This document shows, one piece after another, positions 26,133 to 27,529 of a stretch of DNA of 64,000 nt. Position numbers and translations under genes: made by a program. The notes under the pieces are model-generated. The model saw nothing but the letters and a program-made list of their open reading frames with translations, did not search any database and was not told the origin of the DNA. Position 1 is the first letter of the stretch. Each line of letters opens with the position of its first letter. This DNA is from Ramlibacter sp. Its GTDB lineage: Bacteria; Pseudomonadota; Gammaproteobacteria; Burkholderiales; Burkholderiaceae_C. The DNA is taken from contig JAHBZN010000001.1 of the NCBI GenBank assembly GCA_019635415.1, positions 620,001-684,000 on the forward strand, in the 5' to 3' direction.

Positions 26133-26531
26133 TCAGGTGGCCGCTGTCCGCAGAATTTTCTCCAACTCTTCGCGCAACTGGGTCACTGCAGATTGCAACT
26201 GTCCCAGTTCGGCGCTGAAGCTGGGATTGACCAGGGGCGACTCGGCGAGCTTGAGAACGGCTTCGGCCTGGTCGGTGCGTCCCTCCAGCAAGGCGGTGGC
26301 GGCGGCAGTGGTCAGCGCGTTGCGCAACATGTGACTGTGCTGCTGCCTTGCCACCGCATTGTGCAGGGCCAGCCCCAGCGCGTGGGCAATCGTCTGGTAG
26401 GCGGCGGCCGAGGCAAACGGCACCTGCATTCCGGTCAGGGTGGCCTGGACCTGGGCCACCGAATCCCGGATCTGGTCATTCAGCGCGTCCTGCCCGGGCG
26501 CGCTGTCGTTGGCAGTCGGGTCCTGGCTCAT
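26133..26531 (-). CDS. RebB-family R-body protein with C-terminal coiled-coil extension
   Basis: A 132-residue protein. Residues 15-85 follow the RebB (killing trait) pattern: NDQIRDSVAQVQATLTG, AYQTIAHALGLALHNAVARQQ. It adds about 45 residues with a heptad-like C-terminus (LQSAVTQLREELEKIL). ATG overlaps the preceding Reb gene stop as ATGA. R-body proteins polymerise into coiled ribbons that unroll. The extension could cap, anchor or regulate the polymer (inference). It is the third and last reb gene. Confidence 0.82.
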   Translation of the reverse strand: MSQDPTANDSAPGQDALNDQIRDSVAQVQATLTGMQVPFASAAAYQTIAHALGLALHNAVARQQHSHMLRNALTTAAATALLEGRTDQAEAVLKLAESPLVNPSFSAELGQLQSAVTQLREELEKILRTAAT

Positions 26532-26770
26532 CGTGGCGTGCGCGTCGCGGCGCTGAGAAGCAGTGCGACGGCCTGACTGGTGGCGGCCTGGGCCAGCACC
26601 TCGCCTGATTGCTGCTGCGCCGTGGCGTTCTGAGCCGCCAGGCCCATGGCCTGACTGACCGTTTGATAGACCATGCCCATGGCCTGCGCGGGAGCATCGC
26701 CGAGCACCTTCACATTGGCCTGCGCGACCGCGTCGGTGACCTGGTCGTTGACGGAGGTGGGGAAGGCCAT
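26528..26770 (-). CDS. RebB-family R-body protein
   Basis: An 80-residue protein close to the next gene upstream: MAFPTSVNDQVTDAVAQAN, VLGDAPAQAMGMVYQTVSQA, GLAAQNATAQQQ. This matches the short RebB consensus. It is Ala/Gln-rich and has no signal peptide or membrane helix. It lies four bases after the first Reb gene and overlaps the third, so all three should be made together, as expected for R-body structural subunits. Its C-terminus (SAATRTPR) diverges from its paralogue. Confidence 0.88.
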   Translation of the reverse strand: MAFPTSVNDQVTDAVAQANVKVLGDAPAQAMGMVYQTVSQAMGLAAQNATAQQQSGEVLAQAATSQAVALLLSAATRTPR

Positions 26771-26774
26771 GGCG

Positions 26775-27014
26775 TCAGACCTTGTCGCTGGTGGCGCCTA
26801 GCAAGGCCTGCACGCAGCGGGTCGTCACAGCCTGAGCCAGCACACTGGCCTGCTGCTGGGCGTTGGTGGCGTTGTGGGCCGCGTTGGCCAGGGCCTGGGC
26901 GGTGGCCTGGTACAGGTTGCCCAGCGCCATGGCGGGGGCATCACCAATGACCTTGACGTTGGCCTGGGTCACGGCGTCGGTGATCTGGCTGTTGACTGCG
27001 GTGGGGAAAGCCAT
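26775..27014 (-). CDS. RebB-family R-body protein
   Basis: A 79-residue protein with the clearest RebB signature: MAFPTAVNSQITDAVTQANV, VIGDAPAMALGNLYQATAQA, AAHNATNAQQQASVLAQAVT. It shares the same N-terminal start and about two-thirds of its positions with the second Reb protein, so the pair arose by tandem duplication. R-bodies are known in Caedibacter and in Comamonadaceae such as Hydrogenophaga taeniospiralis and Acidovorax avenae. It is the first recognisable structural gene of the operon. Confidence 0.9.
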   Translation of the reverse strand: MAFPTAVNSQITDAVTQANVKVIGDAPAMALGNLYQATAQALANAAHNATNAQQQASVLAQAVTTRCVQALLGATSDKV

Positions 27015-27053
27015 GGGAATATCCGTCTTTCTGGGTGGGTTGAAATTGCAGGG

Positions 27054-27269
27054 TCAGGGATCGGTGGGGTCGGACCCTGGCCCGGGCGCGTCATTCATGC
27101 GCTGGACCGCCGCGCCCACGGCCTCCTCGGCGGCCTGCATGGCTGCCAGCATGATGGCCAGGGTGGCCGGATCAGCGCCAACGCGTCGTACCGGCACGCC
27201 GTCCTGGGTCGTGACCGATGCATTGTCCGATCCGGTTTGCGGTGAGTCCGGGGGCGAGGGTGTTTCCAT
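27054..27269 (-). CDS. small hypothetical protein upstream of the reb genes
   Basis: A 71-residue frame on the same strand, 39 bases before the first Reb gene. The N-terminal 30 residues are Pro/Ser/Thr-rich; a central Ala/Met-rich helix (ATLAIMLAAMQAAEEAVGAA) follows. The Ala-rich helix recalls Reb proteins but the RebB N-terminal motif is missing. The start is uncertain: the frame stays open to 27392. It may be an accessory reb gene or untranslated leader. Confidence 0.45.
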   Translation of the reverse strand: METPSPPDSPQTGSDNASVTTQDGVPVRRVGADPATLAIMLAAMQAAEEAVGAAVQRMNDAPGPGSDPTDP

Positions 27270-27481
27270 GAGGCCTGCAGTGTGGGCTGTTCCAGAACCG
27301 GCCGCATCCCCAGAACTGATGAGAAACGGCGCCCAGACCAGCTGCCTGCGGTGCGGCTCACCGGGCATGGGAGCCTCCGCAGCCGTGTGCACGCCAAAGC
27401 CTGTCGCACCGTTGTGTGGACGTGTTGGAAAGTTGGTACTGAATATCTGCCATGGTGAGGCACCGTGGTCGGGACAGGTGC

Positions 27482-27529
27482 AATCTAGGCCATGCCCTCT
27501 TTCGCGGCAATCCTGTCAAGGTTGACAGG
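27482..27529 (-). promoter_or_regulatory. lux-box-like palindrome and possible reb promoter
   Basis: CCTGTCAA GG TTGACAGG (27512-27529) is a perfect 8-2-8 dyad resembling LuxR-type operators. On the minus strand, TAGATT (27487-27482) lies about 35 bases from the dyad centre, near the spacing of a lux box overlapping -35 and a -10 box. It would drive transcription toward the reb genes. No LuxR gene is in the window, so the assignment is inference. Confidence 0.4.

What the first reader, a model, noticed from the sequence alone, without database searches (positions are those of the whole stretch)
26133..27529. Three-gene R-body (RebB-family) operon
Two 79-80 residue RebB paralogues (MAFPTxVN.Q.TDAV.QAN) and a third with a coiled-coil tail are encoded with a 4-base gap and an ATGA overlap. 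R-bodies are contractile protein ribbons, best known from Caedibacter killer symbionts, and were seen by microscopy in Hydrogenophaga taeniospiralis and Acidovorax avenae. Their role in free-living Comamonadaceae is open. The third protein, with about 45 extra residues, may be a new component.
Basis: partly seen in the sequence, partly recalled or inferred. Interest (0 to 1): 0.65.

Follow-up and report, generated by a model that had tools for sequence, protein, structure and literature searches.

The report
Compact four-gene R-body-type (reb) operon

Summary
In detail: three RebB-family genes lie on the minus strand (Pfam PF11747 at 97, 92.5 and 51 bits) with the stated gap and overlap. The operon is larger than described. 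A fourth gene (27054-27368, 104 aa) lies 39 bases upstream, with a GGAGG ribosome site; it is kept in every cassette found and matches nothing in Pfam, PHROGs or PADLOC. The same four genes occur in the sister species, two Hydrogenophaga genomes, one genome of another Burkholderiales family and Novosphingobium beihaiensis. In this genus they fill a site that is empty in relatives. The two short Rebs (76-81 aa) lack the C-terminal segment of primary Rebs; the third forms its own starred clade, with a heptad-patterned tail. Other Comamonadaceae reb clusters read here are the known six-Reb Group 1 type, so the Hydrogenophaga taeniospiralis microscopy cannot simply be carried over. The most likely role is making an R-body-type ribbon, with the third protein as end or assembly subunit and ORF4 as assembly partner; that is inferred, not shown. 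New variant of a known kind.

The parts
27054..27368 (-). Pro/acid-rich N-terminal part, C-terminal motif AMQxAExxVxxAV
   Evidence: GGAGG with 5-nt spacing before ATG in both species; first 22 codons differ at codon positions 3/3/9; motif kept in six genomes; no Pfam/PHROGs/PADLOC match, and none in NCBIfam for the 71-aa form
26775..27014 (-). short Reb protein 1, 79 aa; 91% identical in the sister species, about 70% to Group 1 primary Rebs over the shared part, but ends before their C-terminal segment
   Evidence: PF11747 97 bits, E 6.6e-28; alignment A8; dN/dS 0.09
26528..26770 (-). short Reb protein 2, 80 aa
   Evidence: PF11747 92.5 bits, E 1.7e-26; dN/dS 0.15
26133..26531 (-). third Reb protein, 132 aa: Reb domain (residues 21-83), then conserved AVLKLAESPLVNPS and a C-terminal heptad-patterned helix
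   Evidence: PF11747 51 bits, E 1.3e-13; six-member clade 100/98*; a/d positions all hydrophobic in window, G001, G073, Novosphingobium
27374..27378 (-). GGAGG ribosome-binding site of ORF4
   Evidence: read directly; identical in the sister species
27512..27529 (.). perfect inverted repeat CCTGTCAA-CC-TTGACAGG, candidate operator
   Evidence: identical in the sister species; only copy of TGTCAANNTTGACA in the 64-kb window
27482..27510 (-). candidate promoter TTGCC(G/C)-N17-TAGATT just downstream of the inverted repeat
   Evidence: conserved with the same 17-nt spacing in window and sister species; consensus match only, not shown to be used
27617..27995 (+). decayed divergent gene: remnant of a 373-aa exported protein that is intact in the sister species at the same place; part of the insert, role in the system unknown
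   Evidence: tblastn pieces 27671-27814 (48%) and 27843-27995 (59%) in different frames, middle of the gene missing; no Pfam match for the intact protein

Best explanation
A horizontally acquired, compact R-body-type operon. Two short Reb proteins co-polymerise into the ribbon. The third Reb protein uses the same Reb domain to join the polymer, and its heptad-patterned C-terminal tail makes it an end, edge or nucleation subunit rather than the bulk subunit. ORF4, the first gene, is a small non-Reb assembly or regulatory partner, playing the part that non-Reb genes play in the studied systems (RebC of Caedibacter, AZC_3784 of Azorhizobium). The product would be a coiled ribbon in a minority of cells, unrolling when the cell is engulfed and acidified by a grazing protist. 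Shown here: the Reb homology, the conservation of all four genes and the insertion into an otherwise empty site. Inferred: polymerisation, the roles of the third protein and of ORF4, and the use against grazers.
For: Pfam RebB matches; sole cluster in the genome; purifying selection. The four genes travel together in six genomes, from two classes and four genera, with ORF4 moved to the other end of the operon in Novosphingobium, which argues that it belongs to the system. murB and argG are 51-202 bp apart without reb in three same-family relatives, against 1911 and 2692 bp here and in the sister species. Patchy presence of reb genes: 2/2 in genus, 6/400 in family, 6/399 in order; third protein 1/119 in Novosphingobium. 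All-helical low-confidence models, with separate C-terminal helices in the third protein. Literature: non-Reb genes are needed for or tied to R-body assembly (PMC5527310, PMC3583457).
Against: I know of no ribbon seen from any compact cassette. Its short Rebs (76-81 aa) lack the C-terminal segment of primary Rebs; the other clusters read here contain Rebs of 88 aa or more. None of the Group 1 partners (HP1.1, HP1.2, HP1.4) and no sigma factor or Crp-type regulator lies directly next to it. Structure models are poor (mean pLDDT 60 and 68) and no solved Reb relative exists.
Confidence: 0.6

Rival explanations
1. An ordinary Group 1 reb cluster that has been reduced by gene loss: the short Rebs are trimmed Group 1 primary Rebs, the third protein is the extended Reb HP1.3 without its proline-rich tail, and ORF4 is a lineage-specific add-on.
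For: Short Reb 1 is about 66-71% identical to Group 1 primaries and shares their NLYQATAQALANAAHNAT stretch. HP1.3 of Pseudoalteromonas is also short (111-134 aa) and begins VNDQITDS. Profile match of third protein to HP1.3 E 2.3e-13. One clade of third plus HP1.3 is not rejected, p-AU 0.415.
Against: The third protein matches primary Rebs as well or better (E 7e-16 and 1.3e-16). In the free tree it is a starred clade beside an Oceanibacterium Reb and apart from the HP1.3 clade. The same cassette with ORF4 recurs in two classes, so it is not a one-off reduction in this genus.
Confidence: 0.25
2. The cassette makes a Reb polymer that is not a contractile ribbon (for example a short filament, sheet or inclusion), because the short Rebs lack the C-terminal segment.
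For: In PA14 and Caedibacter the short Reb (RebD) is not needed for, or not found in, R-bodies while the longer Rebs are (PMC8322103, PMC3583457). The compact cassette has only 76-81 aa Rebs plus the third protein.
Against: By sequence short Reb 1 is much closer to structural primaries (66-71%) than to RebD-length Rebs of other clusters (41-44%).
Confidence: 0.2
3. A decaying remnant without function.
For: The divergent gene next to it has decayed in the window genome; presence is very patchy.
Against: All four frames intact in both species of the genus; dN/dS 0.09-0.17 for the reb genes, 0.5 for ORF4; promoter-region repeat identical.
Confidence: 0.05

Closest known systems
Group 1 reb clusters (Raymann 2013, PMC3583457; Dorr 2026, PMC13430693), e.g. 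Eleftheria terrae plasmid, Azospirillum brasilense plasmid, other Comamonadaceae genomes
   Same: Reb domain; MAFPT(A/S)VNxQITD start; tandem primary Rebs followed by an extended Reb; horizontal, patchy spread
   Different: Group 1 has four primary Rebs of 88-96 aa, HP1.4, HP1.3 with proline-rich tail, HP1.2 and HP1.1. The compact cassette has two Rebs of 76-81 aa, a third Reb with a heptad tail instead of a proline-rich one, and ORF4; HP1.1, HP1.2 and HP1.4 are absent
Caedibacter taeniospiralis rebABCD (type 51 R-body)
   Same: Small operon with three Reb homologues and one small non-Reb gene (RebC, 10 kDa; ORF4 is 104 aa)
   Different: No sequence link tested between RebC and ORF4; literature says RebC has no homologues (PMC3583457); Caedibacter RebB and RebA are 13 and 18 kDa
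Azorhizobium caulinodans reb operon (AZC_3781-3788)
   Same: Reb genes plus a non-Reb gene (AZC_3784) essential for R-body formation but apparently not a component (PMC5527310)
   Different: Has its own Crp-Fnr regulator RebR; four Reb genes; relation of AZC_3784 to ORF4 not tested
Pseudomonas aeruginosa PA14 reb cluster (rebP1P2, rebD, rapA, rcgA, fecI2)
   Same: Structural Reb pair in one operon; an accessory protein joins the R-body
   Different: Group 2 type with sigma factor and regulator (PMC8322103); no RapA-like gene in the compact cassette

Membership tests
RebB protein family (Pfam PF11747) | profile match above curated cut-off (24 bits) | tested here: met
   97, 92.5 and 51 bits for the three proteins
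RebB protein family (Pfam PF11747) | QITD and QQQ/NAV signature motifs of primary Rebs | tested here: met
   QITD/QVTD and QQQ present in the two short Rebs; third protein has QIRD and NAVARQQ
Primary (structural) Reb proteins of PMC13430693 | C-terminal segment beyond the core (domain 4) | tested here: not met
   both short Rebs end 8-17 residues before Group 1 primaries; only the third protein has sequence beyond the core. This lowers the claim that they are ordinary structural Rebs, not that they belong to the Reb family
Group 1 reb synteny | presence of HP1.1-HP1.4 next to the Rebs | tested here: not met
   no such ORFs beside the operon: murB on one side, decayed divergent gene and argG on the other; profiles of HP1.2 and HP1.3 do not match ORF4. 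Whether the third protein descends from HP1.3 is open
Group 2 reb synteny | HP2.1/HP2.2 (about 205-220 aa), with sigma factor and Crp-type regulator often nearby | tested here: not met
   no such genes between murB and argG; an ECF-type sigma gene lies about 2.5 kb away beyond argG, link not shown
R-body (contractile coiled ribbon) | coiled ribbon visible by electron microscopy, SDS-resistant, extends at low pH | not testable with these tools
   needs expression and microscopy

The most novel reading that the evidence does not exclude
A third R-body architecture, separate from Groups 1 and 2, in which Reb subunits cut down to the bare Reb helix, a dedicated coiled-coil Reb subunit and a previously undescribed small partner (ORF4) build the ribbon from about 1.2 kb of DNA. 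It would be among the smallest natural contractile protein machines and might have its own trigger.
Probability: 0.3. Interest if true: 0.55.

Novelty: new variant of a known kind. Interest (0 to 1): 0.4.

Why it matters
R-bodies are studied as pH-driven protein springs, and what each Reb gene does is still open. A four-gene cassette of about 1.24 kb with one short pair, one extended Reb and one non-Reb partner is small enough to test gene by gene. It suggests that the C-terminal segment of the primary Rebs can be dispensed with in a system that selection keeps. It also warns that R-bodies seen in one Hydrogenophaga cannot be assigned to the reb genes of its relatives, since two different cluster types exist within that genus.

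Tried and rejected
Phage origin: no Reb or third-protein relatives in phage records or in two viral-contig scans; only a PHROG of unknown function matches the Reb core. Defence system: no PADLOC match. ORF4 as a relative of HP1.2 or HP1.3: profile comparisons negative. Third tail homologous to the tail of HP1.3 or of long Rebs: profile alignments stop at residues 84-89; HP1.2 gives only a weak full-length alignment (E 1.3e-4, probability 53%) that I do not rely on. Solved-structure relatives: none. Fold search was not run because both models were low confidence. Foreign base composition: the reb insert is not unusual (rank 51 of 209 windows), so the case for transfer rests on the empty site and the patchy distribution. 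Laying out the whole genome was not available. I could not tell whether any listed genome is H. taeniospiralis itself. No third-protein match in plasmids and no DNA match in E. coli.

Full report
Observation. The three Reb-family ORFs are present on the minus strand at the stated place. All exceed the Pfam RebB cut-off, and they are the only matches in the 4.2-Mb genome, while 14 control genomes have none. The 4-base gap and the ATGA overlap are as described.

A fourth gene. Upstream of the first reb gene lies ORF4. The METP start gives 71 aa, but the better start is at 27368 (104 aa): a GGAGG box stands 5 nt before it in both species of the genus, and the first 22 codons differ between the species 3/3/9 by codon position, the mark of a coding stretch. 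ORF4 diverges fast (54% identity, dN/dS 0.5) but keeps AMQxAExxVxxAV in all cassettes. It has no match in Pfam, PHROGs or PADLOC, and none in NCBIfam for the 71-aa form.

The cassette elsewhere. The same four genes occur in the sister species, in Hydrogenophaga sp. MAG_7 and a second Hydrogenophaga genome, in a genome of another Burkholderiales family and in Novosphingobium beihaiensis, where ORF4 is last instead of first. A genome-collection scan with the third protein found only two named genomes with essentially the full length, plus matches to Reb cores and one longer match in Oceanibacterium. In a sample of 398 genomes of the phylum no other genome had a full-length third protein.

Insertion. 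In three relatives of the same family murB and argG lie 51, 73 and 202 bp apart; here 1911 bp and in the sister species 2692 bp separate them. In the Hydrogenophaga genomes the cassette lies beside a TraB/GumN-like gene and a hemerythrin-like gene, and in Novosphingobium next to recA; those gene names are my reading of the translations. Presence of reb genes is patchy: 6 of 400 in the family, 6 of 399 in the order, 6 of 67 in Hydrogenophaga; the third-protein profile matches 1 of 119 in Novosphingobium and 1 of 64 in the family of G073.

Two kinds of cluster. Of six reb-bearing Hydrogenophaga genomes, four have six Reb matches and two have three. One of the four appears to be the same record as G595, which I read: it is the Group 1 type of Raymann et al., with four primary Rebs of about 89-96 aa, HP1.4, HP1.3, HP1.2 and HP1.1. 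The compact cassette has two Rebs of 76-81 aa that stop before the C-terminal segment, and no HP1.1, HP1.2 or HP1.4.

The third protein. Its Reb domain (residues 21-83) aligns with primary Rebs (E 7e-16 and 1.3e-16) and with HP1.3 (E 2.3e-13). In a tree of 84 Reb domains the six third proteins form one starred clade (100/98) beside an Oceanibacterium Reb, separate from the HP1.3 clade; but few columns were available, the bootstrap had not settled, and a joint clade with HP1.3 is not rejected (p-AU 0.415). The tail holds AVLKLAESPLVNPS across two Burkholderiales families, then a 3-4-3-4-3 spacing of hydrophobic residues (LLVLLI in the window; LLVLIV, VLILLL, ILMLYV in others; for the Hydrogenophaga rows the script picked the wrong start and I read the tail by eye). 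The AlphaFold2 model is low confidence (pLDDT 60) but all-helical, with a separate last helix at 104-131. 'Coiled-coil tail' is therefore plausible, not proven.

Regulation. A perfect inverted repeat CCTGTCAA-CC-TTGACAGG (27512-27529) sits directly upstream of TTGCC(G/C)-N17-TAGATT, both conserved in the sister species. The repeat does not match the published PraR or RebR consensus of Azorhizobium (PMC5527310). It could equally serve the divergent gene, which is intact in the sister species and decayed in the window.

Mechanism. By homology the two short Rebs should be the bulk of a polymer. The third, with a Reb domain and a possibly self-pairing tail, fits an end, edge or nucleating subunit. 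ORF4 fits the non-Reb assembly gene known from Caedibacter (RebC) and Azorhizobium (AZC_3784) by position and size only. Action against grazers is inferred from Caedibacter and PA14 (PMC8322103, PMC13430693). None of these steps was tested.

Verdict. The reb operon is confirmed; it is a compact variant that has one more gene than reported and a distinct third Reb. Its membership in the Reb family is secure. Its ability to make R-bodies is likely but untested, and the microscopy in Hydrogenophaga and Acidovorax should not be used as evidence for it. I could not check whether the 2026 survey already counts such clusters among its rare groups or its 'unknown' class.

Noticed in passing
27617-27995 (+): Decayed copy of a 373-aa exported protein of no known family that is intact and divergent to reb in the sister species (L010 4663-5931); the middle is missing and the remaining pieces are in different frames.
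   Followed up: partly
29849-31268 (+): ECF-type sigma factor followed by a probable anti-sigma factor gene, beyond argG from the reb operon; a sigma factor (FecI2) drives reb in P. aeruginosa, but no link is shown here.
   Followed up: no
20840-21736 (+): Serine/threonine protein kinase-like ORF of 298 aa directly after an ORF with a C-terminal membrane helix.
   Followed up: no
L041 7012-7389 and L042 (Brevundimonas, Caulobacter): Caulobacterales reb clusters hold additional divergent Reb-like ORFs (long tree branches), including a 125-aa one with a charged N-terminal part.
   Followed up: no
L011 972-1499 and L023 7630-8196: Two Group 2 type reb clusters in Burkholderiales carry a phage-type lysozyme-like ORF (by eye) next to the reb genes, a possible cell-release gene.
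   Followed up: no
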